NCBI RefSeq assembly: GCF_000013565.1
Contig: NC_007802.1
Location: 1,984,001 to 2,048,000 of the forward strand
Reading direction: 5' to 3'
Source of the DNA: Jannaschia sp. CCS1
Lineage (GTDB): Bacteria; Pseudomonadota; Alphaproteobacteria; Rhodobacterales; Rhodobacteraceae
DNA length: 64,000 bases
Of this stretch, positions 13,062 to 45,990 are shown piece after piece. A model generated the notes under the pieces. It was not told the origin of the DNA, made no database searches, and saw nothing but the letters and a program-made list of their open reading frames with translations. The translations under genes and the position numbers were made by a program. The stretch's first letter is position 1. Every line of letters begins with the position of its first letter.

Positions 13062-13151
13062 GGACAGGTGGCCGAGTGGTCGAAGGCGCACGCCTGGAAA
13101 GTGTGTAGGCGGGAGACCGTCTCCAGGGTTCGAATCCCTGTCTGTCCGCCA
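13062..13151 (+). tRNA. tRNA-Ser (GGA anticodon)
   Basis: A class II tRNA of 90 bases including encoded CCA. The acceptor stem GGACAGG pairs with TCTGTCC. The D-arm region is GTGGCCGAGTGG. The anticodon stem CACGC/GTGTG encloses loop CTGGAAA, with anticodon GGA. A long variable arm, GGCGGGAGACCGTCTCC, and T-loop TTCGAATC follow. It is intact and is the insertion target of the downstream integrase element; its 3' end is echoed at 45,226. Confidence 0.97.
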
Positions 13152-13222
13152 TTTCTCTTTCTGTAGTTCTTGCATAACGCTCTGATAGTAGTGTGAAATT
13201 CGGCGTTTTCGCGCTTACGACG
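13138..13222 (+). repeat. attL-like left junction of the integrated element
   Basis: The tRNA 3' end and trailing bases (13138-13158) match 45226-45246 at 19 of 21 positions. A second block of 22 bases (13201-13222, beginning CGGCGTTTTCGC) is identical to 45289-45310. In both copies the two blocks start 63 bases apart, with a diverged middle. This is the expected geometry of duplicated attachment sites, so 13,138 marks the probable left boundary of the element. Confidence 0.75.
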
Positions 13223-13240
13223 TCTCTCGGTCCGCTTGAT

Positions 13241-13274
13241 TTGCTGCACATCTTGCTACACAATTTGCTGCACA
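13241..13274 (+). repeat. Three 12-bp-spaced iterons (probable integrase arm sites, left end)
   Basis: TTGCTGCACA, TTGCTACACA and TTGCTGCACA start at 13241, 13253 and 13265, exactly 12 bases apart. The same iteron series occurs at 45132-45165 near the other end. Short phased repeats between the core site and int are typical arm-type integrase or excisionase binding sites; that role is inferred. Confidence 0.65.
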
Positions 13275-13293
13275 TTCGGGAGTTTTCTCCGCC

Positions 13294-14562
13294 ATGGGCA
13301 TTGCAAAGAGAGGCCGTCTCTATCACCTCCGACGCCGCGTCCCGCGCCGGTATTGCGGGGTTGAGCCGCGCGAAACCGTGTGGATCAGCCTGCACACTGA
13401 CTCTGAGACAGTGGCCATGAGCAAGGCGGACCGCGCATGGAGCCAGATGATTGAGGCTTGGGAAGCACGTTTGGCCGGGAACAGTGACGATGCAGAGGCG
13501 CGATACGAGGCAGCGCGTGACCTGGCTCGGGTTCGAGGCTTTCGGTATCTGGACGTCGGTGCCGTCGCGAAGTTACCTGTAGAAGACGTTGTCGAGCGTG
13601 TGGAAGCAATTCCAGCCACGATGGATCAACTGGACGCCATTGAGGGCGCTGCTCTTCTTGGAGCGGCTCCTGAGCCTTGTACAACGGTCACAAAGACGCT
13701 AGAGCTATACTGGACGCTTGCCCGTGAGAAGACCTTTGGCAAAAGCGAAGACCAACTGCGCCGTTGGGAGGCGCCCCGCAAGAAGGCTATCAAGAACTTC
13801 GTTGCCATCGTCGGCGACAAGGACATCGCCAACATCACCCGCGACGACATGCTGGACTTCCGCCAGCACTGGCTCGACCGGATCGAGGCCGGCGAGGTCA
13901 CGGCGAACTCGGCCAACAAGGACCTGATCCATCTCGGCGACGTGCTTAAGACCGTGAACACGATGAAGCGGTTGGGGCTCATGCTGCCCTTGGGCGAGTT
14001 ATCCTTCAAGCAGGGTGAGGCGCGAACCCGCCCACCGTTCAGCGAAGACTGGATCACAACGCGGTTGCTGGCCCCGGGCGCGCTGGACGGATTGAACGAC
14101 CAAGCGCGCGGCATCTTACTGGGGATGGTGAACACCGGCTATCGCCCATCCGAGGGGGCCGCGTTGACGGCAGACACGATCCGGCTCGATTGCGACGTGC
14201 CGCATATTTCGATTGAAGCTGATGGCCGTCAGCTGAAGTCACACTTCGCCCGGCGGGTGATCCCTCTGGCTGGCGCTTCGTTAGAGGCCTTCAAGCAATT
14301 CCCTGACGGCTTCCCCCGCTACCGCAACAGCGCCAGCCTAAGCGCGGTGGTTAACAAGTTCCTCCGCACCAACGGCCTGCTCGAAACCCCGCGTCACTCA
14401 TTTTACTCGCTCCGGCACTCCTTCGAGGATCGCATGCTCGCCGCCGGGATCGACGACCGGATAAGGCGGGATTTGTTTGGTCATCGATTAGATCGGGAAC
14501 GGTACGGAAAAGGTGCGTCGCTCGAACATGTCGCCGAACTCGTCGGTCGGGTCGCTTTCTGA
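13294..14562 (+). CDS. int: Tyrosine recombinase / phage-type integrase
   Basis: A 422-residue tyrosine integrase that would insert and excise the element at the tRNA-Ser. It has an N-terminal arm-binding region, a core-binding SAM-like domain (about 130-240) and a C-terminal catalytic domain. The catalytic residues are Arg284 in TGYRPSEGAAL, Lys315, Arg374 in YSLRHSFEDR (with Tyr371 where many relatives have His), His397 in LFGHRL and the nucleophile Tyr404 in RERYGKG. All are present, so it looks active. ATG at 13294 lies 20 bases after the iterons. The 3' end overlaps a convergent small gene. Integrases of this size adjacent to tRNA genes are characteristic of genomic islands in Rhodobacterales. 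Confidence 0.92.
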   Translation: MGIAKRGRLYHLRRRVPRRYCGVEPRETVWISLHTDSETVAMSKADRAWSQMIEAWEARLAGNSDDAEARYEAARDLARVRGFRYLDVGAVAKLPVEDVVERVEAIPATMDQLDAIEGAALLGAAPEPCTTVTKTLELYWTLAREKTFGKSEDQLRRWEAPRKKAIKNFVAIVGDKDIANITRDDMLDFRQHWLDRIEAGEVTANSANKDLIHLGDVLKTVNTMKRLGLMLPLGELSFKQGEARTRPPFSEDWITTRLLAPGALDGLNDQARGILLGMVNTGYRPSEGAALTADTIRLDCDVPHISIEADGRQLKSHFARRVIPLAGASLEAFKQFPDGFPRYRNSASLSAVVNKFLRTNGLLETPRHSFYSLRHSFEDRMLAAGIDDRIRRDLFGHRLDRERYGKGASLEHVAELVGRVAF

Positions 14563-15312: not shown

Positions 15313-16149
15313 TCAGTGAAAATTTGCCTGAAAGCTCAAAGCCGTCAGCGACACATGTGCGTCCAGCGGGGGCCGCAACTCGAACGCTTTAGGGGCACGC
15401 GCGAAGTTCCAGAGGCGAAACAAACACCACTCATCGCGCCGCTCATCTGCCACGGCAAGCTCATTGCGAGAGATATGAAACGGCGTGCGCTCCCACCCAT
15501 TTGTGGTCTTAACTTCGATCAACCGTTGCCGTCCGTCCGCATCAAAACTGGCAATATCATACCCCGCACCGTCCCCGTCCTTGTCCGAGACCCAGCGAAT
15601 TTGATCCGCCAAGTCCTTGCGCCCGGCTGCCGTCAAACTGTCACGCTCATGCTTCAAGACACGCTCTTCGCCTGCTTTCCCGAGGGCGCGGTTGCGTTCA
15701 TCGCGCGCCGCGACATGAAACTTTCGGGCGATGTGGAGCATCTGCTCAAGCTCCTCTGGCGGCGGCTGATTGGTCAGGGTCGGTGCCGGTCCGACCCAGA
15801 GTTGTGCCGCCTCCGCCATGCCGTTCGCTCGCTTGGGAGTGCGGATCTGAAGCGCGTCAGCGGGATTTAAGACCAGCCGCCGCGCCACTGCGTCAATCAG
15901 GCTTGCCTGAAAGTTGAACGCTGGCTTGTACCCGATGATCCAAGTCTCGCCGAGCCCCTTGAGGACCGCGCTAATGTTCTGGTGTTTGAACTCAACTGCG
16001 CCCTCCGAGCGATTGTTGAGCAGCGGCAAGAGCTGCCGCCGATGCGCCGCCTTGTTATAAGAGTGGCCCGTCAAATCGTCGGCAAGCATCGCGAAGTAAT
16101 CCGCAACGATCAGGTCATTCTCGGCATCTGTCCACGCATGGTTCGACAT
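15313..16149 (-). CDS. DUF3883 (PD-(D/E)XK nuclease-like) protein
   Basis: A 278-residue protein. Residues 1-100 form a helical domain beginning NHAWTDAENDLIVADYFAML, containing KHQNISAVLKGLG and GYKPAFNFQ; this part recurs in restriction-like proteins. Residues 160-265 are a DUF3883 domain with the nuclease-fold signature DKDGDGAGYDIASF followed by LIEVKTT, i.e. the Asp and Glu-x-Lys of the PD-(D/E)XK superfamily. DUF3883 proteins are common in defence islands, next to helicases and NTPases. It is divergent from the NACHT gene across 244 bases, which must hold both promoters. DNA-targeting defence is inferred from fold and neighbours; catalytic activity is not proven. Confidence 0.8.
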   Translation of the reverse strand: MSNHAWTDAENDLIVADYFAMLADDLTGHSYNKAAHRRQLLPLLNNRSEGAVEFKHQNISAVLKGLGETWIIGYKPAFNFQASLIDAVARRLVLNPADALQIRTPKRANGMAEAAQLWVGPAPTLTNQPPPEELEQMLHIARKFHVAARDERNRALGKAGEERVLKHERDSLTAAGRKDLADQIRWVSDKDGDGAGYDIASFDADGRQRLIEVKTTNGWERTPFHISRNELAVADERRDEWCLFRLWNFARAPKAFELRPPLDAHVSLTALSFQANFH

Positions 16150-16393: not shown

Positions 16394-18700
16394 ATGACAA
16401 AGAAGGTTGGGTCCGAACTACGTGACACAGTTGCAGGGCTTCTAGAAATAAAATTCTCGGACGTTCGAACTGAAGAACGGCTGACTGCAACCACTGCTGA
16501 TGTCTTCTACATTGACGACTTGTCGACCTTTCCACAAAGAATTGCCGTCGAATGTAAGGATTGGGCCAAGCCTCTTACGTCTTCTGATTTGGCCGAAATC
16601 CACGGTCTCTACCAGCCGTCCTTACAATGTGGTGAGATCGACAAACTTTTGATTATCTCCAATCATGAGCTTGGTATGAGCCCATCGGAGACAGTCAAAC
16701 GGCTTGGAAATATGAGGCATCAGCAGTTCGAAAGTTTCGTACACGGGTTAATGAATTTTCAACTGCTTCTGCAGAATAATCTAGCTGCATTCAAGAACCA
16801 TGAAACGTTCGGAAACTATGTCCAACCAAGGTTGGCAGGTACTGAAAATTCTCTTTTTGGTGCCGTCGAGAAATGGCTAGCTGAACCTGAAAACCCCGTT
16901 TCAATGGTTTATGGTGGCTACGGAGTGGGTAAAACCTCCTTTAGTTTTTTCTTGGCTGACGCTCTTACAAAGAAGTATCGAAGTGGCCAGTTCGGTAGAA
17001 TCCCCATTCGTATCTCACTTGGACACCTATTTACCAAACAGGATTTGAAAGCGCTTGTGTGTTCTGAACTGACTGGTGCCGAAGGGCAGCCTGCAGTTGC
17101 AAACTTCACTTTCGAGCTCTTCCTGCAAATGCTGAGCTCTGGAAGTATTTTTCTTATTTTGGACGGATTCGACGAAATGCGCCATGCGATGTCCATCGAG
17201 GACTTCGCCTATACATTTGAACAGATGTCCGTTTTTTTCCGAGGTAGGTCTAAGGCAATCATCTTGGGTCGCCCGGATGCGTTCTTTGACGAGCAAGAAG
17301 AAACTGATGTCGTAAACGCTCTCTTGTCCAACGCAGAAATCCGTAGTGACGGCCTTCGAAAATTCGAGTTAGATCTCCTCTCGCGCAAGGAAACAGAAGA
17401 GTACATTGAGAACTTTAAAGCAGTAAATGACCTCACAGATGAAGAGCTCATTCTCATAAATGAACTGCAAGACTCAGAGTTTGAAATCCTATCTAGGCCG
17501 GTTCAATTAAGTATGTTCACAAAAGTAACACGGACCTATTCAAAGCGAAGAGATGGACCGCTTACACGTTACAAGTTGTACGAAGAGTTCGTGAAGAGAT
17601 TTACCCACCGAGAAGAGAAAAAGCCTGCAAGGGCACTCTTGAATGGAAACCACAGTTATCAGGTTGGATACAACGATCCGCGATCACAATTCATGCAGAA
17701 TTTGGCATGGTGGATTTCGACTTCGCATCGCGAAAACCGGTTCCTACCAAACGAAATTCCGGTCGCTACTTTGCCTCGGGAATTGAGGCAGGGCCGCAAA
17801 AAAGTTGATGCTATAAGAGAGGCATTGGTCGGATCAATAGCCGAGCACAACATCAAGCAAAAAGAAACAGGTGTAGTTGGCCGAAAAGGGGCAAACTACT
17901 ACTATTTCCCCCACAAGAGTTACATTGAGTTTTTGGTTAGCCAGTACTTTTGCCGCGTACAGTTCAATAAAGAAATGTATCGAGATTTCTTTAAGTTCGC
18001 GAATCCCGAAATGATCTCTTTCGTAAAGGAGGGACCAAACGTCGGAGCGCAGAACATTACGCAAGGCATGCAGCACGTTATTTCTAACGTTCCCAGAGAT
18101 TTAATTACCATTGGTAGTCAGAGCGAGATCTTGCGGGAAAATGCACAGTCGATGATAGGGGGCACACTCACTGACGCAAACCGATTCCTTCTCTATGAAC
18201 TCTTTATCCAGAGCAATGCTGTTGAGGACATTGAAAGACTGCTTTTATTTTCAGTGAACAACTCTAGAGTGAAGAAAAATATTTCTACGGCCTTGAGACT
18301 CAATCGTGACTATTTGTTGAGATTTGGCTCGTCCTCCTACGCCGAGCGTTTGGTTGCAAATAGCCTCTTGGCCTCCTCGCCAGTTCGCATCAAACAAGCA
18401 TCTGAAGATCAATTTATACCCGGTTACATGGATGGTGCTTTCATACCCCAACTTGTTCTGGGCAAATGCTTGCAGCGCAGTAAGTCACTCACGTGGAGAT
18501 TTAGTCCACTCGCACTCAATGAACAGGATGAAGGAAAAACATCATCTGGGTTCAGATGCGAAGATTACGGCCACTCTGGCGTTCAGAAGGGCACTGGTAA
18601 GCTTCTCAAGATCAGGCCAGCGAAGATTTGGGAAGTGTTTTCCAAAGGCAGCACCACTAGCTTCGTCCGGGCAGAAGCAAAGCAGTTTCTTGGACTGTAG
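16394..18700 (+). CDS. Mrr-like nuclease fused to NACHT NTPase (candidate antiphage STAND protein)
   Basis: A 768-residue protein. Residues 1-110 are a restriction-endonuclease-like domain with Asp36 (TADVFYID) and Glu53-x-Lys55 (IAVECKDW), the PD-(D/E)XK core seen in Mrr-type enzymes. The NACHT domain follows: Walker A GGYGVGKT at residues 174-181, and Walker B LILDGFDEM at 254-262 with the NACHT-type Asp-Gly-x-Asp-Glu. The remaining 450 residues are helical and lack obvious TPR or LRR repeats, and would be the sensor. This architecture (nuclease effector, NACHT switch, C-terminal sensor) matches bacterial NACHT/Avs antiphage proteins. Base composition is visibly AT-richer than the flanks, suggesting transfer. 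The last 80 residues are compositionally different and may be read-through into repeat sequence. Confidence 0.85.
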   Translation: MTKKVGSELRDTVAGLLEIKFSDVRTEERLTATTADVFYIDDLSTFPQRIAVECKDWAKPLTSSDLAEIHGLYQPSLQCGEIDKLLIISNHELGMSPSETVKRLGNMRHQQFESFVHGLMNFQLLLQNNLAAFKNHETFGNYVQPRLAGTENSLFGAVEKWLAEPENPVSMVYGGYGVGKTSFSFFLADALTKKYRSGQFGRIPIRISLGHLFTKQDLKALVCSELTGAEGQPAVANFTFELFLQMLSSGSIFLILDGFDEMRHAMSIEDFAYTFEQMSVFFRGRSKAIILGRPDAFFDEQEETDVVNALLSNAEIRSDGLRKFELDLLSRKETEEYIENFKAVNDLTDEELILINELQDSEFEILSRPVQLSMFTKVTRTYSKRRDGPLTRYKLYEEFVKRFTHREEKKPARALLNGNHSYQVGYNDPRSQFMQNLAWWISTSHRENRFLPNEIPVATLPRELRQGRKKVDAIREALVGSIAEHNIKQKETGVVGRKGANYYYFPHKSYIEFLVSQYFCRVQFNKEMYRDFFKFANPEMISFVKEGPNVGAQNITQGMQHVISNVPRDLITIGSQSEILRENAQSMIGGTLTDANRFLLYELFIQSNAVEDIERLLLFSVNNSRVKKNISTALRLNRDYLLRFGSSSYAERLVANSLLASSPVRIKQASEDQFIPGYMDGAFIPQLVLGKCLQRSKSLTWRFSPLALNEQDEGKTSSGFRCEDYGHSGVQKGTGKLLKIRPAKIWEVFSKGSTTSFVRAEAKQFLGL

Positions 18701-21021: not shown

Positions 21022-23007
21022 TTACCCACGCCGCCCGACCATAGCCTTTGCGATCTCGACAGCCTGCTCCGACGGTGTGTTCCCCTTGCCGAACTCGACC
21101 TTATCGGCGGCTAGTGCGTCCGAGAACTCCGTCAGAATGGCGGGGTCGTGGGTGCGGCCCATGGCGTAGAGATGCAGCGCGTCGGCTCGCGCGGCGTGGA
21201 AACCCGCAAGGCGCATGTTGTACCGATAAAGTGCCGCAAGCGTTGCGAGGAGGAACAACAGCAAGATGGCCTGCGGCGCCCGTTCGGCAAGGATCTCCCA
21301 CACCGTCTGGCTTTCGGCTTGGCGAAGGTCGACATAGGCGCGGGTGCAGTGTTCGGTGCCCACGCCCTCTGCCTCGTCTGACAGGTCGGCTGTACATACG
21401 CGCATGAACTCCTCGAAATCCTGGCGCCGTTGAGCGAGAGAAAAGCCGCCTGTCCTGATTTCGTCGGCGGAGGCGCGGGCGGATTGAAGGCGGGTTTCGA
21501 GGTCGGCACGACCTTCGATGGTGCCGTCCAGTTCGGCGAGTAAGGCCCCAACGACGGGGTGGTTGCGAACATACTCCGGGAGCCCGGCAATGCCGCTGCG
21601 GTAGGCATTATCGCCGAGGGAGCCGGAGAGAGGTCCGATCGCGGCGAGGGCATCGGCGTAACGGTCGTCGATAATCACAATCGCGCCAAAAAAACCTATC
21701 GCAATCAGTGTCGTACCATCGGGTAGAACGCGGATATCTCTTAGGGTAATATCTTGCCCGGAAGGGCGGGGCGTCCATGTCACGCCGGCATCGGTCGAGC
21801 GTATGACTGCGCCATCTGACCCTACCGCCACCAGGATGCCGCTGTCGGGCAAAACGCTGAAGTTGAACAGATTCCCATCGATGCCGGAGGGGCGGGGCGT
21901 CCATGTCATGCCGGCATCGGTCGAGCGTATGATTCCGCCACTTGATCCCACCGCGATCAGAGTAACGCCGTCGGGCAGCACGCGAGGGACATACAAATCC
22001 GCAATGACGCCGGAGGGGCGGGGCATCCAGGTGCTATCGGTATCGGTAGACCTTATGACGGTGCCGCTCTCTCCTACCCCGACTAAGGTGGTGCTGTCGG
22101 GCAGAATGCCGAGGTTGAACAGATCGGCATCCACGACGGAGGGAAGGAATGTCCAAGTTTCGCCGGCATCGGTCGAGCGTATGACAGTGCCGTCTTCGCC
22201 TACAGCGACCAAGGTGGCGCCGTCCGCCAGAATGCCAAGGTTGTATAGATCAACATCCACGCCGGAGGGGCGGGGCATCCAAGTGTTGCCAGCATCAGTG
22301 GACCGTATGACTGCACCGCTTCGTCCAACAGCGATTAGGGTGGTGCTGTTGGGTAGCACGCGTAAGTCGTACAGACTGTTATTGACGCCGGAAGGGCGGG
22401 ACTGCCAAGTGTTGCCAGCATCAGTGGACCGTATGACGGTGCCGCCCTCTCCCACAGCGACCAGGGTGGTGCTGTCGGGCAGAACACGGAGGTTGAATAG
22501 ATCAATATCCACGCCGGAGCGACGAGGTGTCCAAGTGTTGCCGGCATCGGTGGACCGTATGACGGTGCCGTGCCGCCCCACGGCGACCAAGATAGTACCG
22601 TCGGGCAGACTACGGACGTCATTCAGGTTTACGTCGACGCCAGAGGGGCGAGGAGTTCCGATTCCCTTCAGCTCTTCGGACAGAGCTGTCCATATGCGGT
22701 CCCTTGCCTCATCCATCCGGTCCAACTGCGAGGACAGCGTACCCGCCTCAGCTTCGTAGACGCTGCGTGACGACTCGTTCCATTGGAGGTACAACGGCAG
22801 GCCTACGTAGTACCCGATACCTAGTAGGATAACGGCGATTAGTGCGGCAAAGATGCCCTGGGCGCGGCGCGTGGCATTGTGAGCTCGGCTGCGCTGGTTC
22901 TCGACGAGTGTTGCGAAGGGGAACGGAATATCGGCGGGCGGCGACACCGGGGGCGCGGGCGAGGTGGCGGGTTCTGGCTTGGGATGTATATCGGCGGGCT
23001 GGTTCAT
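21022..23007 (-). CDS. Membrane-anchored Asp-box (YCF48-like) repeat protein
   Basis: A 661-residue protein. Residues 1-50 are Pro-rich and cytosolic, a membrane helix spans about 51-75, and a short coiled region follows. Eight tandem 42-residue repeats (about 121-456) each carry the Asp-box STDAGxTW and a VAVGxxGTVIRS strand, giving a predicted beta-propeller similar to YCF48/BNR domains. A helical region and a second membrane helix (ILLLFLLATLAALYRY) end the protein. Function unknown; beta-propellers of this type bind ligands or partner proteins. ATG at 23007 is preferred because GGAGGAG lies 4-10 bases upstream; an extension by ten residues has no such site. It is a single gene between repeat-bearing gaps. 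Confidence 0.75.
   Translation of the reverse strand: MNQPADIHPKPEPATSPAPPVSPPADIPFPFATLVENQRSRAHNATRRAQGIFAALIAVILLGIGYYVGLPLYLQWNESSRSVYEAEAGTLSSQLDRMDEARDRIWTALSEELKGIGTPRPSGVDVNLNDVRSLPDGTILVAVGRHGTVIRSTDAGNTWTPRRSGVDIDLFNLRVLPDSTTLVAVGEGGTVIRSTDAGNTWQSRPSGVNNSLYDLRVLPNSTTLIAVGRSGAVIRSTDAGNTWMPRPSGVDVDLYNLGILADGATLVAVGEDGTVIRSTDAGETWTFLPSVVDADLFNLGILPDSTTLVGVGESGTVIRSTDTDSTWMPRPSGVIADLYVPRVLPDGVTLIAVGSSGGIIRSTDAGMTWTPRPSGIDGNLFNFSVLPDSGILVAVGSDGAVIRSTDAGVTWTPRPSGQDITLRDIRVLPDGTTLIAIGFFGAIVIIDDRYADALAAIGPLSGSLGDNAYRSGIAGLPEYVRNHPVVGALLAELDGTIEGRADLETRLQSARASADEIRTGGFSLAQRRQDFEEFMRVCTADLSDEAEGVGTEHCTRAYVDLRQAESQTVWEILAERAPQAILLLFLLATLAALYRYNMRLAGFHAARADALHLYAMGRTHDPAILTEFSDALAADKVEFGKGNTPSEQAVEIAKAMVGRRG
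21640..22647 (-). repeat. Eight in-gene 126-bp tandem repeats
   Basis: The gene's DNA repeats with a 126-base period (42 codons), eight units, each encoding PSGVDxDLxNL, LPDxTTLVAVG and STDAGNTW. Neighbouring units are very similar, so expansion or contraction by recombination is likely. Confidence 0.8.
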
Positions 23008-23652
23008 AATCTCCTCCGTATCACGTAGCCGGCACAATGGGATTGAAAACTATGATACGATTGGTCGCTCAAATCTAGATTGCTCTGTCTGGTAGGTCGC
23101 AAATCTAAAGCACGCTTGGTTGTATATTTCTTTAGCGTAAGCGGACGTTGGAATGGGTGCATCGAAAGCTCGCTCCGTCCGCAGATTGCCAGTTCGCCGC
23201 CTGCTCGGTTTCGCGTTCACAGCGAAAGTCCGATATGGTGGGCCGCACTGCAGCGACCGCCCAAGTTTATGAACGGCAAGAATGGGCCGAGAGCGCCTGT
23301 GTCTACCTACCAAACCACGCAGCGGCGCTGCACCGCCGCAAGTCCGCTTTGAGCCCAGACCTACCATCTTCTGCGCAACGACGAATGACGGCTTTCCGAG
23401 TAGCTCTCTCGATACTCATCGCTTAGAGAAAGTCATGAGAGAGCTGTTAGAAGAGATGGTATTGAGAGACATGCCGATCTACTGTTCATGACGAGGTGCG
23501 CGATCTGACGCGCCTCTTGCAAAAGATCATTTTTGAAGGGTAGATATGATTGGCATCCCCTGCATAGAGTAAAATCCGACACTACTCTATTTCAGGCTTG
23601 CCAGATCAGCACTGCTGGGCCTACGGTTGTGAGACATTTATGGGAGGGCAAA
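23008..23652. other. Intergenic region with repeat copy and two inverted repeats
   Basis: About 640 bases. A repeat copy at 23226-23290 includes GGGCCGCACTGCAGCGACC and AAGAATGGGCCGAGAG. A perfect 9-bp inverted repeat, AGCTCTCTC (23402-23410) with GAGAGAGCT (23437-23445), and a GAGGTGCG/CGCGCCTC hairpin (23493-23516) lie upstream of the conflict-system genes and may be regulatory. No credible gene is seen. Confidence 0.45.
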
Positions 23653-23970
23653 GTGGCGAAGGCGGAAAGTTATTTTTTAGATGACGGTACTGAAATTTTC
23701 ATTGAAAATGCACAAGGCTCCGGGATCAAACGCGTATCGATTGGCGGTGACAGTGTAAAGCGCAAAGTTTCAGTAGTTTTGTCCAGCATAGGCCCAACAA
23801 TATCGCAAATTAGGTCTAGTATAACCGCTGGTGAGATGGCTCCAGACGAGATTTCAATAGAATTTGGTGTGCAGCTTTCAACTGAGGTAGGTGTGATTAT
23901 TACTCGGGCATCTAGCGACATTAATTTCAAGGTATCAGCGAAATGGAATATGTCTCAAACTGATGCATAA
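23653..23970 (+). CDS. Trypsin-co-occurring domain 1 (Trypco1 / CU044_2847 family) protein
   Basis: A 105-residue beta-rich protein starting VAKAESYFLDDGTEIFIE, matching the small Trypco1 family that accompanies trypsin-like proteases in bacterial conflict systems. GTG at 23653 is chosen over a start 120 bases upstream because GGGAGGG lies 5-11 bases before it and the extra N-terminal residues look random. The core continues GSGIKRVSIGGD and the C-terminal strand VSAKWNMSQT. Its last eight bases overlap the start of the protease-NTPase gene (ATGCATAA), so the two are translationally coupled. The presumed role is partner or substrate of the protease. Sequence is AT-rich relative to the core. 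Confidence 0.78.
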   Translation: MAKAESYFLDDGTEIFIENAQGSGIKRVSIGGDSVKRKVSVVLSSIGPTISQIRSSITAGEMAPDEISIEFGVQLSTEVGVIITRASSDINFKVSAKWNMSQTDA

Positions 23971-26900
23971 ACCGTCAGTAGAGAGCTCTATTGTCCGAAT
24001 TATTCGCATCAGTGACCAGCAGTGGGTAGGCTGCGGATTCTATGCGAAATTTGGCGACCTGAGCGTGCCGCCCCTAGTTGTTACTTGCGCACACGTAGTT
24101 GCCGATGCGATCGGTGACCCTTCTGTTGCAGAGCAAGCCAGTAGACCAAGCGGAACTTTTAGAATTGACTTCCCCAATTCGCTGCAAAACCGTCAGATTG
24201 AATGCAATGTGGTCGACGCGAAAAACGCTTGGCATCCCGCTACTTCCACCCTGTCGGATCATTCTAGACCATTTGATATCGCCTTCCTTCAACCACCTAG
24301 TCTAGAAATCCCAATCGATATAAAGCCCATAGACATCAAAGTCGATTGCACATTTACCTCGGGACAGAACTTGAATGCGTTTGGTGGTGCCGAAGAAGGC
24401 AACTTAGTCGACGACGAGTTCGGAGAATGGGTGCGCGGTAAACAAGTCCGGCGAATGCACGGACGTTTTCAGTTTAAGTCCAATCCAAGTGAGACACTAA
24501 ACGTCGTTAGAGAAGGCTTCTCTGGCACTCCAATCATCACAGAAAAAAATGATGACGTCATTGGAATGGTAACTGTTGCGGACGAAGGCAAGGGCTTAGC
24601 ATGGTTTCTTCCAGTTCAGACGCTCTTCGAAGCCATTAACGGCGGTCCCGTCGAAGAACCAGAGGAGATAACCGTTGATCCTCGCACCTTTTCCCTTGAT
24701 GACGTTCCTATCGATCTGCACCCACCTTTCGTAGAGACCTACTTCAAAAGAAAATCTGTTCAAGAAACGATCGAGGCCAAATTCGATAATTTTCTATCGA
24801 TAGGAATTTACGGCGGTACAGATTCCGGCAAGACTGGCGAAACATCCATTTTCGTGCAGCGTTTGGTGGAATCTGAGCAACGCCCATGCGTTTGGTTCGT
24901 TTGTTCTGAAACTAGTTCGATTACAGAACTTATTGAAGTTGTATCTGAAGTTCTGGGCGAACACTGCGGCGAGAAGCCGACCTTTAGGCACTTGCTCCGC
25001 GCGCTGCACCAAACGAACTTGTTGTTGATAGTTGACCAGATCAACGCGGTTTCTGAAAGGAACCGACAAGGCTTCTTTGGTCTTCTCGATCTGTGCAGGA
25101 ATAGAAAAAGCACCACTTCTCTTATTTTCATCCTCTCAGATGACCACTCTGCTTACAAGGATGACGCTTCCACAGTTTGTCTGAGTGCAATGTCACGAGA
25201 AGAAGTGGTCGAGATCATTTCACAAGAGGCCGGTCTCCCAGTGGAGGACGTTCAAGATGCTCTTTATGCCGACAGATACCGTTGTTCGGAGGTCTCGCTT
25301 CTTCTTCAAAGAATCGTTGAAGACCCCAGCAGGATTCACGAAATCGCTAAAGAGAATGTTGCGCTTAACGACACTATCTCATCAGAATTCAAACCACACG
25401 AGCGCGCTGTACTTACTGCATTGGCAATGACTGATCAGTATGTCGACAATGACTTTTTCCGAAGAGTCTGCGAAACGATAGGTGTACAAGATTGGCAAGA
25501 CCTTCAAGACCGGTTGTTCGGCTTCGGACTGCTTCGCACTGCGGGCACGCGTAGGATTTTTGTAACCAATTTTGTCCGGGAAAGAATTCGTTCTTCAACT
25601 CCCACGGTGAGTCAAAAACAAGCCGATAAGATTCTTGGTACGGTTTGGTTGGAGAAACACAAAGAACAAGATCAAGGCGAAACGCCCAAATTCGACATTT
25701 CTAGCGACGACATGATCTACTTGGCAATTCGTCACTTTCAGCGCAGCATGAGCGCGGAGCAGATGGTGGAATCGCTAATAAGCGAGCACCGTTGGAATTT
25801 GGCTAGAGCTGGCCACCATCGATATCTCGTTGCGATCCTTGATTTCGAGTTCAAGACAAAGCGGCGAATGCCAATATGGTCCCAGTATCAGTACGTTCAA
25901 AGCCTTGTCGCAACAGGCGAAATAACTTCTGCTTTCTCAGCCATGAAGCGAATTTGTTCGATTTTGCTTACAAGTCGCAATCTGAAGCCAGACTCGCTGA
26001 TGCAGTTATGCACAAGATTTTCTGACGTTCTTCAGAACGCTCGGCACTACGATTTGGCTCAAGAACTACTGGAAACTGCACTACAGGAAATCGACAACTC
26101 CCAGCTGCAAGCTTCAACGCTTCGGATCGCAACATCCCATCTCTTATGGAGTAAGATATATTGTGAGCCTAAAATTGGAATTGCGTACGAACTGATATCA
26201 TTGCGCGAAGAAGCACTGCTGGCGCGAAATGATCTCGCGGTTGCGATTGAGTCCACAAGACTGGGTGTTCTTTACCTAAATCTAAAAATGGCTGATAAGG
26301 CTGCTACCGAACTCCTGCAGGCCGTAAGGTTCTTCCAACATACAGACCAGCGAGGCCTTATTTGGTCACTTGGCCACTATTCAGTGGCTCTAGTGCGAAG
26401 TGATCCACTGAACGTACCCCTTGATGAGTTAGAATGGCTTTGTGAATGCATACAGAAATTCGATCTTCTTAGCGAAGAGACTTACGAGTATTTTCGTCTG
26501 TTTGAGGAGCTACTTCACGGTGAAGAGCTTCAAGAACGAGTTGCCTCCGTAAAAGAAACCGCTCTAGAAGCTTCGAACAACAGAGAACTGAGAGAAGAAG
26601 ATTTAGAATTCGTTTTGGTCTTGCAAGAGTTTCTGAAAGAGAATGGCTTGGACGAACAATCGAAGAAACGACAAGGCACGGCTGATACAGATAACGTGCG
26701 AGGCAAAACTTCGTTTCTTCACTCGGCTCAATTCAAAATGGATTCGCAAGCAAATAAGTCGTTTGTAAGGAACCTTGTAAGTCGTGATCCGGAGGGTGTC
26801 GCTTCAGATCTGTTCGATCGCTACTCCCTCCAACGCATCTTTCGCACACCAATCCTATCTAGTGTGTTGGTCGCCTGCTGCAAAAGGTCTCGCAACGAAG

Positions 26901-27463
26901 AGCTAGTCGACTCCTACGTCGTATCCAACTTAGGCGTGATATTGTCGTCCAGAGACGACGTTAAACTCTTCTTTGCGAGGTTCTTGGAGCAGGTAAAGAA
27001 AGATGCGGAATGCGAAGAATTGCTCGACTCAGTTGGAAAAAAGTCAGGCTTCAACTTCTATAACGTTTCTGCAAACCTGTACTCCAGAAAGAGTTTTGAA
27101 ACTGCGCTCGACTACAACCAAAAAGCACTCACAGCATCCGCAAAAGCCTCTCAAAGGGCGAGAGTCAATAATAACATAGCGGTCTTGATACTTGAGAATG
27201 GCAAATCGGACTTACTTGCAAAGGCTAAGCTCCATATTCAAGAATCCCTCAAAGAGAAATACCGTGGATACAATTGGCCCAATCGAACCAAACTTGCAAT
27301 TGATGTAAATTGTGCCGAAAGCCAAGAGCTTAACCAAATAGTGGCGGGTTATTTCGAACGGTCCGGCGACGACCAAAGGACTGTAAAATACACTTCGCGC
27401 CTAATCATTGATCCTGACCGGCGTATTGAGTTTCTCTCAGCCTGCGACGCAATCCTAGACTAG
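23963..27463 (+). CDS. Trypsin-like protease fused to STAND NTPase with helical-repeat sensor
   Basis: A 1166-residue multidomain protein. Residues 1-225 are a trypsin-fold serine protease with catalytic His44 (TCAHVVAD), Asp105 (PFDIAFL) and Ser187 (EGFSGTP). Residues 275-450 are a P-loop NTPase with Walker A GGTDSGKT (284-291) and Walker B LLLIVDQ with Asp358. A winged-helix-like segment near 480-540 and a long TPR-like helical array (about 600-1150) follow. This order (effector, STAND switch, superstructure-forming repeats) is that of described NTP-dependent conflict systems in which trigger binding to the repeats activates the protease. The coupled Trypco1 gene upstream supports this. There is no signal peptide, so it is intracellular. 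The convergent kinase gene shares its stop region. Confidence 0.88.
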   Translation: MHKPSVESSIVRIIRISDQQWVGCGFYAKFGDLSVPPLVVTCAHVVADAIGDPSVAEQASRPSGTFRIDFPNSLQNRQIECNVVDAKNAWHPATSTLSDHSRPFDIAFLQPPSLEIPIDIKPIDIKVDCTFTSGQNLNAFGGAEEGNLVDDEFGEWVRGKQVRRMHGRFQFKSNPSETLNVVREGFSGTPIITEKNDDVIGMVTVADEGKGLAWFLPVQTLFEAINGGPVEEPEEITVDPRTFSLDDVPIDLHPPFVETYFKRKSVQETIEAKFDNFLSIGIYGGTDSGKTGETSIFVQRLVESEQRPCVWFVCSETSSITELIEVVSEVLGEHCGEKPTFRHLLRALHQTNLLLIVDQINAVSERNRQGFFGLLDLCRNRKSTTSLIFILSDDHSAYKDDASTVCLSAMSREEVVEIISQEAGLPVEDVQDALYADRYRCSEVSLLLQRIVEDPSRIHEIAKENVALNDTISSEFKPHERAVLTALAMTDQYVDNDFFRRVCETIGVQDWQDLQDRLFGFGLLRTAGTRRIFVTNFVRERIRSSTPTVSQKQADKILGTVWLEKHKEQDQGETPKFDISSDDMIYLAIRHFQRSMSAEQMVESLISEHRWNLARAGHHRYLVAILDFEFKTKRRMPIWSQYQYVQSLVATGEITSAFSAMKRICSILLTSRNLKPDSLMQLCTRFSDVLQNARHYDLAQELLETALQEIDNSQLQASTLRIATSHLLWSKIYCEPKIGIAYELISLREEALLARNDLAVAIESTRLGVLYLNLKMADKAATELLQAVRFFQHTDQRGLIWSLGHYSVALVRSDPLNVPLDELEWLCECIQKFDLLSEETYEYFRLFEELLHGEELQERVASVKETALEASNNRELREEDLEFVLVLQEFLKENGLDEQSKKRQGTADTDNVRGKTSFLHSAQFKMDSQANKSFVRNLVSRDPEGVASDLFDRYSLQRIFRTPILSSVLVACCKRSRNEELVDSYVVSNLGVILSSRDDVKLFFARFLEQVKKDAECEELLDSVGKKSGFNFYNVSANLYSRKSFETALDYNQKALTASAKASQRARVNNNIAVLILENGKSDLLAKAKLHIQESLKEKYRGYNWPNRTKLAIDVNCAESQELNQIVAGYFERSGDDQRTVKYTSRLIIDPDRRIEFLSACDAILD

Positions 27464-27969
27464 CTCTGTCGCAACGAACGATATAACTCTGATTCTTCAA
27501 AGTCGCTCGACTTAATTGTTCTTATTTTTCCCAATTTGAGCTTCGCATATCTTTTGTATGCCATATCTATGACCCTCTCTGGTACCAATTGCCATCCAGA
27601 ACGCATTGAGTTTTGTTTGATTGCAACCTGCTTTGGCACCCATCGAAAATCTAGCACGGCAACACCATAATTGTGTTCATTTGCAAGTTTCGCTGGCATT
27701 TTAAAATGCTCTGGAAGCTGGAAGGTAGCGTCTATGATAACTGGTTCTGATCTCTTCATTCGACCTGCAACTTCAAGCTCAACTTCTCGCCACACTTCGT
27801 CTTCTTCAAAAAAACCTCGTTCCTCGACGCCATCAACAACGTAAATTCCGCCGATTTGCGCTCGGATCATGTCTGGGCTTACCACAAGGTGCCATAGGTC
27901 CAATTCCCTTAGCAGGGTAGACTTCCCAACGCCGGGAGCACCGCATGTGAGTATCAAAAGCCGGGGCAC
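27460..27969 (-). CDS. P-loop kinase, polynucleotide-kinase-like (AAA_33)
   Basis: A 169-residue P-loop protein with Walker A GAPGVGKST at residues 10-18, an SPDMIRAQIGG segment resembling the substrate-binding DxxR of T4 Pnk-like kinases, and IIDATFQ as the second acidic motif. Family members phosphorylate 5'-OH nucleic acid ends, or small metabolites. The GTG start at 27969 is supported by GGAGAAGAAA just upstream. It converges on the protease-NTPase gene; the palindrome CTAG supplies the stop codon TAG to both genes. The lone kinase lacks the ligase and phosphatase partners of RNA-repair operons. A defence role is inferred only from its neighbours. Confidence 0.7.
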   Translation of the reverse strand: MPRLLILTCGAPGVGKSTLLRELDLWHLVVSPDMIRAQIGGIYVVDGVEERGFFEEDEVWREVELEVAGRMKRSEPVIIDATFQLPEHFKMPAKLANEHNYGVAVLDFRWVPKQVAIKQNSMRSGWQLVPERVIDMAYKRYAKLKLGKIRTIKSSDFEESELYRSLRQS

Positions 27970-28477: not shown

Positions 28478-29473
28478 ATGGCGAAGAGTAAGATTGACGA
28501 GTTGATGTCGGTTGGCATCGATATTGGCAAAGACACATTCCATGTCGTGGCATTTGACCCTGATGGGCACCTGGTGATGCGCAAGCGGATCAAGCGGTTG
28601 GCTCTTGTGGCGACCTTCGAGAAGTTGCCGCGTTGTGTGGTGGGTATGGAGGCGTGCCTGAGCGCCCATTTCGTGAGCCGGACGCTTCGCAAGATGGGCT
28701 TCGAGCCTGGGATCATTCCAGCGATCTACGTGAAGCCGTTCATCAAGGGTCAGAAGAACGATTACAATTACGCCGAGGCTATATCTGAGGCAGCGTTACG
28801 CCCTAATCTGCCAGTCGTTCCAGAGAAAAGCCAAGAGCAGCTCGACCTGCAGGCGCTACATCGCGTTCGCTCGCGCCTTGTGTCGCGCCGAACTGCGTCG
28901 ATAAATCAGATCCGCGCTTTCTTGATCGAGCAAGGCATCACGGTGCGCAAAGGTCTGCGCGTCTTGAAGAATTCCTTCGGAAAGATCTTGGATGAGCGCA
29001 AGGACGAGATATCACCGCGCATGCGCACGATCTTGATCGGCCTGTATGGAGATTGGCTTTGGTTAGATGATCGGATTGATACGGTTTCCAAAGAGATCGA
29101 GCAGATCAGTCGAACAGAGGAGAACTGCATCAATGTCATGACGGTGCCTGGCATTGGCCCAATGATCTCAACCGCGATGGTCGCCGCCATCGGGACAGGC
29201 GAAGCTTTCGGGCGAGGACGCGACTTTGCGGCCTGGGTGGGATTGGTGCCCAGGCAATACAGCACCGGAGGACGAACGATCCTCGGACGCATCACCAAAC
29301 GTGGCAGTCGATATTTGCGAATGCTCTTTGTCCAAGCTGCCAAGGTTATCTTGATGCGGACCAATCGATGGCCGGACTTCAGCTTTGGCGATTGGTTGAT
29401 CAAGGCCGCAGAGCGGATGAACCGAAACAAGCTCGCCGTTGCCTTGGCCAACAAATTGGCGCGCATGGCCTAG
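28478..29473 (+). CDS. IS110-family DEDD transposase, C-terminus cut by an amber codon
   Basis: A 331-residue serine/DEDD recombinase-type transposase. The N-terminal RuvC-like domain has Asp in VGIDIGKDTFHV, Glu in VVGMEAC and the Asp pair in QKNDYNYAEAI. The C-terminal Tnp_20-like domain has VMTVPGIGP, WVGLVPRQYSTGGRT and KRGSRYLRML, which contains the conserved Ser. The frame ends LARMA at TAG (29471). Read through, it continues as WSILRHRTAFDAPRDE in the same frame to a TAA at 29534-29536, which is how relatives normally end. So a TGG-to-TAG change has removed about 21 residues. Activity may be reduced or lost. GGGAG lies before the ATG. Confidence 0.93.
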   Translation: MAKSKIDELMSVGIDIGKDTFHVVAFDPDGHLVMRKRIKRLALVATFEKLPRCVVGMEACLSAHFVSRTLRKMGFEPGIIPAIYVKPFIKGQKNDYNYAEAISEAALRPNLPVVPEKSQEQLDLQALHRVRSRLVSRRTASINQIRAFLIEQGITVRKGLRVLKNSFGKILDERKDEISPRMRTILIGLYGDWLWLDDRIDTVSKEIEQISRTEENCINVMTVPGIGPMISTAMVAAIGTGEAFGRGRDFAAWVGLVPRQYSTGGRTILGRITKRGSRYLRMLFVQAAKVILMRTNRWPDFSFGDWLIKAAERMNRNKLAVALANKLARMA

Positions 29474-45225: not shown

Positions 45226-45310
45226 CTGTCTGTCTGCCATTTTTCTCGGATCTTCTTTCGCGTAACCACTTATTAATGGGTCGCACGTCGGCGTTTTCGC
45301 GCTTACGACG
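45226..45310 (+). repeat. attR-like right junction of the integrated element
   Basis: 45226-45246 copies the tRNA-Ser 3' end (19 of 21 bases, with TGCC for the tRNA's CGCC). 45289-45310 is identical to 13201-13222. It lacks the T-arm and all upstream tRNA, so it is not a second tRNA gene. Confidence 0.75.
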
Positions 45311-45990
45311 GCTTCAGGCTAAGAGAAGGTCCGGAGGTTGTCACGACGGCGGGTAACGGTCGTTTGCGATTGGCGCGAGGAGTATAGCTGACTTGACGAA
45401 AGCCGGCATTCCACCGGCACCTCCCGAGACGGCGGATTACTTCTTGGATTCACTGTGTTTGCGCAGTGGCAGGGTGGATCTAATACAGCGCAAACCGTCA
45501 GTTGATTTCTCACATTGCAAGCCTGCACCCTGGGTGATCTCGGACCGCATCAGCCGAGAACCTGCCGGTCCGTTCCAGTTCTAAGTTCGTGTCCTTAGCT
45601 GCATTAAATGCTATCGAAAGAGCGGCAGAAAATCGCGACAGGTCCAGTCTTCTCCCAACAGGGAATCGGTGATTTTGTGTGCTTCCGTGAAGCGCAGATA
45701 CTGTGCGTTGGCCCGGAGCGTGTGGTGCGCGAGGCCACGCTCATCCCGGCGCGAATTGCCGAAGGCGATATGATCGAAGCGTGGCATGCTGAACTCCAAT
45801 GACTTAGCTCACCGACGTCATCACGGGTGGATCACGGCGCATCCCGGAACATGGGTCTTTTGGGGAACACTCCGAACACCCTATTTCCGGCCGCGGCCAA
45901 AAAACGGGTGCGTGCCTCAAGAAGAGGTGCTTTCCTCTACGTCAAGCGTGCGGGGGCATGCGGATCTGACCACCAATTCTTGAGACTATC
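45311..45990. other. Non-coding chromosomal flank after the element
   Basis: About 680 bases with only short, mutually antisense frames (for instance around 45608-45802) that match nothing I recognise. Probably decayed sequence and the promoter of the adhesin operon. Confidence 0.4.

What the first reader, a model, noticed from the sequence alone, without database searches (positions are those of the whole stretch)
23653..27463. Trypco1 plus trypsin/STAND-NTPase conflict system
A small Trypco1-like gene overlaps by eight bases a 1166-residue protein joining an intact serine protease (His44, Asp105, Ser187), a P-loop NTPase (Walker A 284-291) and a helical-repeat array. The architecture is that of computationally described NTP-dependent biological conflict systems, whose trigger and targets are largely untested. 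It lies in a defence-rich, AT-rich part of a mobile element and is the best candidate for a poorly described system here.
Basis: partly seen in the sequence, partly recalled or inferred. Interest (0 to 1): 0.82.

Follow-up and report, generated by a model that had tools for sequence, protein, structure and literature searches.

The report
Protease-armed bacterial immune-sensor gene pair
On a genomic island of a bacterium sits a two-gene unit, a small partner protein and a protease fused to an ATP-driven sensor, of a kind predicted by computation to serve bacterial immunity; the sensor half of this copy resembles nothing else we could find.

Summary
23653-23970 encodes a Trypco1 protein (Pfam E 2e-18). 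It overlaps by eight bases the 1166-residue gene 23963-27463, whose product has an N-terminal chymotrypsin-fold protease (His44/Asp105/Ser187 invariant in 51 of 51 aligned rows; model matches PDB serine proteases), a P-loop NTPase and a helical array. The interpretation (Trypco1 + trypsin-STAND conflict system) is the best supported: of 79 loci fetched with a trypsin motif alone, 63 carry Trypco1, upstream in 55 of 61 scorable pairs and overlapping in 33 of 54; the segment after the trypsin is an nSTAND1 NTPase in 54 of 75. The kind was named by Kaur et al. 2020; the searches made found no experiment on Trypco1. Unusual here: the NTPase-helical part (residues 231-1166) found no sequence relative beyond a weak generic AAA_22 profile hit and a weak collinear profile similarity to nSTAND1. 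The pair is absent from 12 congeners and from the 389 other genomes sampled in its order, and lies near an integrase at a tRNA-Ser. Most likely mechanism: sensing, ATP-dependent assembly, protease activation, with Trypco1 as protease partner. New variant of a known, untested kind; no direct evidence of anti-phage function.

The parts
23653..23970 (+). Trypco1 gene (GTG start, 105 aa)
   Evidence: PF19493 E 2.2e-18, NF041216 E 8.6e-14; aligned with 55 other Trypco1 sequences
23642..23648 (+). ribosome-site-like GGGAGGG before the GTG start
   Evidence: sequence; inference
23963..27463 (+). trypsin-NTPase-helical-array gene (1166 aa), overlapping Trypco1 by eight bases
   Evidence: single copy in the genome
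23975..24652 (+). chymotrypsin-fold serine protease domain (about residues 5-230), triad H44 D105 S187
24812..24835 (+). Walker A GGTDSGKT, residues 284-291
   Evidence: AAA_22 E 5e-4
25019..25039 (+). Walker-B-like LLLIVDQ, residues 353-359
   Evidence: aligns with VDQ of nSTAND1 partners in hhalign
25700..27460 (+). all-helical repeat-like array (about residues 580-1166), presumed sensor
   Evidence: secondary structure of the model, low confidence over most of it; no sequence relative found
13294..14562 (+). tyrosine integrase (context)
   Evidence: Phage_integrase E 1e-7; tRNA-Ser at 13062-13151
45226..45313 (+). att-like diverged repeat of the tRNA-Ser 3' end and its downstream sequence, possible right border of the island (context)
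   Evidence: 67 of 91 identical with gaps

Best explanation
A two-gene, island-borne immune/conflict system. The large protein is an NLR-like switch: the C-terminal helical array senses a trigger (phage product or cell damage), the STAND-type P-loop NTPase then assembles in an ATP-dependent way, and the clustered N-terminal serine proteases become active and cleave a target, probably stopping growth or killing the cell. Trypco1, encoded just upstream with overlapping reading frames, is a dedicated partner of the protease-bearing protein (restraint, adaptor or substrate). Shown here: the domains, the intact triad and P-loop, the gene overlap, the recurrent Trypco1-trypsin linkage, the island context. 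Inferred: sensing, oligomerisation, target, outcome and the exact part of Trypco1.
For: Trypco1 over its cut-off. Triad in 51 of 51 rows. Protease fold. 63 of 79 loci chosen by a trypsin motif have a Trypco1 ORF. Of 61 scorable pairs Trypco1 is upstream in 55 and downstream in 6; of the 54 upstream pairs with a usable start codon the median gap is -4 bases, 33 overlap and 46 lie within 30 bases (the start nearest the Trypco1 stop was taken, which favours small gaps). Segment after the trypsin, 75 scanned: nSTAND1 54, VMAP-C 8, AAA_35 3, NB-ARC 2, kinase 2. Beside the pairs, the only neighbour families in more than 5 of 75 loci are a MoxR-like one (8 loci) and one in 7 loci, six of them the same, so most pairs look self-contained. 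NTPase: hhalign collinear over 306 columns with 53 nSTAND1-like partners, score 18.9 against at most 11.6 in 20 shuffles. Island context. Precedents: trypsin-like proteases fused to defence enzymes of Hachiman and AVAST activate a pro-nuclease (PMC12799240, passages); LypABC peptidase and ATPase residues are needed for lysis (PMC13236601, passages).
Against: No functional data. The hhalign probability is only 7.5%. Trypsin_2 and AAA_22 are below the curated cut-offs. PADLOC gives only RT-Protease_XI at E 0.0024 for the large protein and nothing for Trypco1. Most of the helical part is modelled with low confidence. 16 of 79 trypsin loci show no Trypco1 ORF, and Trypco1 also occurs away from trypsins.
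Confidence: 0.6

Rival explanations
1. Variant of the main reading (not exclusive of it): Trypco1 is the pro-effector. Like the pro-nuclease beside Hachiman/AVAST proteases, it is cleaved by the activated trypsin and a released piece does the damage or signals.
For: Gene order (a separate gene just upstream of a trypsin fused to a defence enzyme) matches the nuclease-protease pairs of PMC12799240 (passages); no other candidate effector is encoded in the unit; Trypco1 has a variable, low-confidence stretch at residues 20-32.
Against: 105 residues, no enzymatic domain by Pfam or NCBIfam; no PDB match by sequence better than E 0.05 or by fold better than E 1.6, though the model is poor, pLDDT 60.
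Confidence: 0.2
2. Variant of the main reading: Trypco1 is an inhibitor or folding partner that keeps the protease off (toxin-antitoxin-like balance).
For: Trypco1 comes first and often overlaps the protease gene; it accompanies the trypsin whether nSTAND1, VMAP, AAA_35, NB-ARC or kinase follows.
Against: Trypco1 also overlaps a CHAT (caspase-like) gene in Arthrobacter plasmid locus L012, and in two class relatives no trypsin match lies in the 3.3-kb loci (L004, L005). Partial correlations did not single out the trypsin (0.21 with trypsin, 0.23 with NTPase).
Confidence: 0.3
3. The large protein is a regulatory (MalT-like) STAND switch whose protease matures a host factor, with no part in defence.
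For: STAND NTPases with helical repeats also act as regulators (recalled; also stated in passing in PMC7159879); no strong defence-database hit.
Against: Rare and island-borne, absent from 12 congeners; the Trypco1-trypsin theme recurs in loci that two papers call putative conflict systems.
Confidence: 0.15

Closest known systems
Trypco1 + trypsin-nSTAND1-propeller pairs of Streptomyces (e.g. NZ_CP108296.1, locus L006)
   Same: Trypco1 gene beside a protein with trypsin, then STAND NTPase, then C-terminal repeats
   Different: NTPase matches nSTAND1 at E 1.6e-79, followed by beta-propeller hits; here no nSTAND1 hit and an all-helical array. Identity 26.9% over residues 24-291
Trypco1 + trypsin-VMAP + MoxR systems (e.g. 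Acaryochloris plasmid, locus L009)
   Same: Trypco1 and the protease domain
   Different: VMAP instead of a STAND NTPase; MoxR and formylglycine-generating-enzyme genes follow, none here
Trypco1 + trypsin-NB-ARC-APAF1_C-WD40 of a Methanosaeta MAG (locus L059)
   Same: protease, apoptosome-type NTPase and repeats in one chain with upstream Trypco1
   Different: strong NB-ARC and WD40; no detectable similarity between its NTPase and the window's (single-sequence comparison)
AVAST and Hachiman nuclease-protease pairs (PMC12799240, passages)
   Same: trypsin-like protease fused to a defence enzyme, with a separate partner gene upstream
   Different: the partner there is an MBL-fold pro-nuclease, here the non-enzymatic Trypco1
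CARD-NLR / LypABC (PMC13236601, passages)
   Same: serine peptidase and NLR-like ATPase in one system
   Different: LypA has an N-terminal CARD-like domain and LypB is a separate NLR-like protein; 'Trypco' does not occur in that main text

Membership tests
Trypco1 (PF19493) | profile match over the curated cut-off | tested here: met
   67.1 against 24.6 bits
Trypco1 / trypsin conflict-system theme (Kaur et al. [quoted passage not shown]
   eight-base overlap; protease fold and triad
Trypco1 / trypsin conflict-system theme (Kaur et al. 2020) | NTPase module in the system | tested here: met
   Walker A and B motifs; AAA_22 E 5e-4, below the curated cut-off
VMAP ternary system | VMAP, MoxR and vWA components | tested here: not met
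   no such Pfam hit among the 28 window proteins scanned
STAND NTPase | STAND profile (NACHT, NB-ARC, nSTAND) over its cut-off | tested here: not met
   NB-ARC 14.7 against 23.5 bits; no NACHT or nSTAND hit
STAND NTPase | collinear P-loop, Walker B and downstream helical part as in known STAND NTPases | tested here: inconclusive
   hhalign over 306 columns, score 18.9 against at most 11.6 in 20 shuffles, but probability 7.5%
S1-type serine protease | His-Asp-Ser triad in a chymotrypsin fold | tested here: met
AVAST / Hachiman nuclease-protease pair | upstream MBL-fold nuclease gene | tested here: not met
   the upstream gene is Trypco1; no MBL-fold Pfam hit among the 28 window proteins scanned
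anti-phage defence system | protection or infection-triggered toxicity | not testable with these tools
   needs an experiment

The most novel reading that the evidence does not exclude
Trypco1 plus trypsin is a portable 'protease fuse' that has been plugged onto unrelated sensors again and again, and this locus shows it on an undescribed STAND-solenoid sensor class: a minimal two-gene inflammasome of a probable Rhodobacterales bacterium in which the protease itself, gated by Trypco1, is the killer.
Probability: 0.3. Interest if true: 0.72.

Novelty: new variant of a known kind. Interest (0 to 1): 0.5.

Why it matters
Since 2020 Trypco1 has been known mainly as a name for a protein that occurs beside trypsin-like peptidases, and the searches made here found no experiment on it. 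A compact two-gene version, in what is probably an alphaproteobacterium rather than an actinomycete or cyanobacterium, is a convenient system in which to ask what Trypco1 does, whether the protease is the effector, and what the sensor sees. The sensor half may represent an undescribed NTPase-solenoid lineage.

Tried and rejected
Genome-contig scan with the single protein: 12 stretches matched, no relative. Viral contigs with Trypco1 and with A1: 13 and 23 stretches, no relative. Phage records: no match. Plasmids: 9 records, all within residues 22-291. Residues 231-1166 against 385 genomes of the class: only the own genome. Full protein against 48 genomes of G887's class: only G887's protease. 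PDB by sequence: best E 0.051 for the Trypco1 profile (a designed helical bundle) and 0.093 for the large protein, both insignificant. Trypco1 model: pLDDT 60, best fold match E 1.6, so its fold is left open.

Idea that Trypco1 co-varies with the protease rather than the NTPase: Trypco1-trypsin against Trypco1-NTPase correlations were 0.78 and 0.20 in 19 non-actinomycete pairs, but 0.75 and 0.74 in 25 actinomycete pairs and 0.70 and 0.44 in all 44; the NTPase rows of the 19 are not all homologous, and among 28 nSTAND1-type pairs the partial correlations are equal, 0.21 and 0.23, reached by 5 and 1 of 1000 permutations. Not established.

Idea that Trypco1 is confined to trypsins: rejected (CHAT neighbour in L012). 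VMAP ternary system: rejected, no VMAP, MoxR or vWA hit. A conserved third gene: the largest neighbour families were in 8 (MoxR-like by eye) and 7 of 75 loci, the rest in 5 or fewer; ORFs under 110 aa were left out. Linking the contig-edge Trypco1 of G148 to a trypsin: that genome has 12 Trypsin_2 matches, one at a contig start, but no link can be shown. Empty-site proof of the island: of four congeners read after the tRNA-Ser, one shares the integrase and three show no island DNA worth the name, but none shows the window's right flank there, so no clean empty site was shown; the right border rests on one diverged repeat.
Full report
What is there. The two genes are at the given coordinates. 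Trypco1 starts at GTG 23653 behind GGGAGGG and ends at 23970; the next ATG is 23963, an eight-base overlap. Pfam Trypco1 E 2.2e-18, over its cut-off; NCBIfam CU044_2847 family E 8.6e-14, over its cut-off.

The large protein. Pfam gives Trypsin_2 at E 4e-4 and AAA_22 at E 5e-4, both below curated cut-offs, so database scores alone would leave it unsure. Two further tests settle the protease. In an alignment with 50 trypsin fragments from fetched loci (50 of the 75 extracted), H44, D105, S187 and glycines 185 and 188 are invariant in 51 of 51 rows. The AlphaFold model made with that alignment is confident over most of residues 11-230 and finds PDB serine proteases (DegQ, Rv3671c, Spl proteases, kallikreins, trypsins) at E down to 6e-8, rmsd about 4-5 A. 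The residue six before Ser187, the usual S1 specificity position, is Val181 by counting in the sequence (the rule is recalled from trypsin), so Arg/Lys specificity is unlikely: inference.

The NTPase has Walker A GGTDSGKT 284-291 and LLLIVDQ 353-359. Against 53 nSTAND1-like modules of other such proteases, hhalign aligns the 325-residue region over 306 columns in register, P-loop on P-loop and VDQ on VDQ, with score 18.9; 20 residue shuffles reach at most 11.6, but the reported probability is only 7.5%. A single-sequence comparison with the NB-ARC of L059 gave nothing (score 2.0). I read it as a strongly diverged STAND NTPase, probable but not proven. Beyond about residue 412 the model is helix after helix; only about 641-730 is modelled well.

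Relatives. A scan of genome contigs with one protease motif gave 192 stretches, 109 confirmed relatives, of which the best 80 (79 distinct loci) were kept: mostly Streptomyces and other actinomycetes and cyanobacteria, with three Gammaproteobacteria, one Anaerolineales, one SAR324 and one Methanosaeta MAG. 63 of the 79 carry a Trypco1 ORF by a profile grown from ten sequences and iterated on these loci; the selection of the loci did not use Trypco1. The 16 without one include contig-edge loci. Of 61 pairs that could be scored, 55 have Trypco1 upstream and 6 downstream; in 54 the gap could be measured: median -4, 33 overlapping, 46 within 30 bases (the start codon nearest the Trypco1 stop was taken, which favours small gaps). 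The segment after the protease was scanned in 74 loci plus the window (one dropped as too short): nSTAND1 54 of 75, VMAP-C 8, AAA_35 3, NB-ARC 2, kinase 2. Of the partner proteins scanned over their whole length, L006, L008, L056 and L059 showed beta-propeller/WD40 hits, while L015, L021 and L038 showed nSTAND1 without a recognised repeat. Trypco1 was present beside examples of each of these fusions. Neighbour families shared by more than 5 of 75 loci were only a MoxR-like one (8 loci) and one in 7 loci, six of them the same.

Rarity and mobility. The large protein is single-copy in its genome. It has no match in 12 congeners or in 389 other genomes sampled in the order (congeners partly included); in 398 genomes of the phylum sample only the own one and a protease-only match in G887 appear, the latter between a Trypco1 ORF and a MoxR-like ORF (MoxR by eye). 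Trypco1 itself occurs in 4 of 385 genomes of the class, the own one included: one other lies at a contig edge (L002), and two have no trypsin match in their 3.3-kb loci. Residues 231-1166 have no relative in the 385 class genomes besides the own nor in the ORFs of the fetched loci (best E 1.1), and the full protein found none over that part in plasmids or phages. G+C of 24-28 kb is 46-48% against about 60-63% in the left 14 kb. A tyrosine integrase lies beside tRNA-Ser; a congener has the same integrase at the same tRNA (83% DNA identity); a diverged copy of the tRNA end and its downstream sequence lies at 45226-45313, suggesting an island of about 32 kb. The host is probably a member of the Rhodobacterales: its alanyl-tRNA synthetase is 73% identical to that on a Pseudorhodobacter plasmid, the best hit; an inference.

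Literature. Kaur et al. 2020 (PMC7159879; passages) named Trypco1 for its co-occurrence with trypsin-like peptidases in VMAP systems, and elsewhere describe STAND NTPases fused to trypsin. PMC10907252 (passages) lists Trypco1 among adapter domains. In the library 'Trypco1' occurs in 2 papers, 'trypsin-co-occurring domain' in 1 and 'CU044_2847' in none; the passages read in those two papers report no experiment on Trypco1. PMC12799240 (passages) shows that trypsin-like proteases in Hachiman and AVAST activate a pro-nuclease after sensing. PMC13236601 (passages) shows that peptidase and ATPase residues of a CARD-NLR-like system are needed for lysis. These make the protease-switch mechanism plausible; they do not test this family.

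Mechanism. Sensor array, NTPase assembly, protease clustering, cleavage. Nothing else in the unit looks like an effector (the next gene, 27460-27969, is on the other strand and matches the P-loop family AAA_33), so either the protease is itself the killer or Trypco1 is its substrate. I give the conflict-system reading 0.6 and leave the role of Trypco1 open, with restraint or adaptor ahead of pro-effector.

Noticed in passing
16394-18700 (+): 768-residue protein with a NACHT match (E 1e-4, below the curated cut-off) and a very weak Mrr-nuclease-like N-terminus (E 0.18): looks like an NLR-type defence gene; no PADLOC hit.
   Followed up: no
15316-16149 (-): Gene with a C-terminal NOV_C domain (E 4e-24), next to the NACHT gene.
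   Followed up: no
13062-14562 and 45226-45313: tRNA-Ser(GGA), integrase and a diverged att-like repeat outline an island of about 32 kb; a similar tRNA-Ser plus downstream stretch (84%) lies elsewhere in the same genome at C2:3578446.
   Followed up: partly
21022-23037 (-): 671-residue protein with YCF48/BNR beta-propeller-like repeats.
   Followed up: no
28478-29473 (+): IS110 transposase; DNA relatives on Sulfitobacter, Thioclava and Tritonibacter plasmids.
   Followed up: partly
L012:3407-6324: Arthrobacter plasmid: the Trypco1 frame overlaps a CHAT (caspase-like) gene rather than a trypsin, so Trypco1 may serve more than one peptidase class.
   Followed up: no
L059:5593-8211: Methanosaeta MAG: Trypco1 plus trypsin-NB-ARC-APAF1 helical domain-WD40, an APAF-1-like chain with a protease at its N-terminus.
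   Followed up: no
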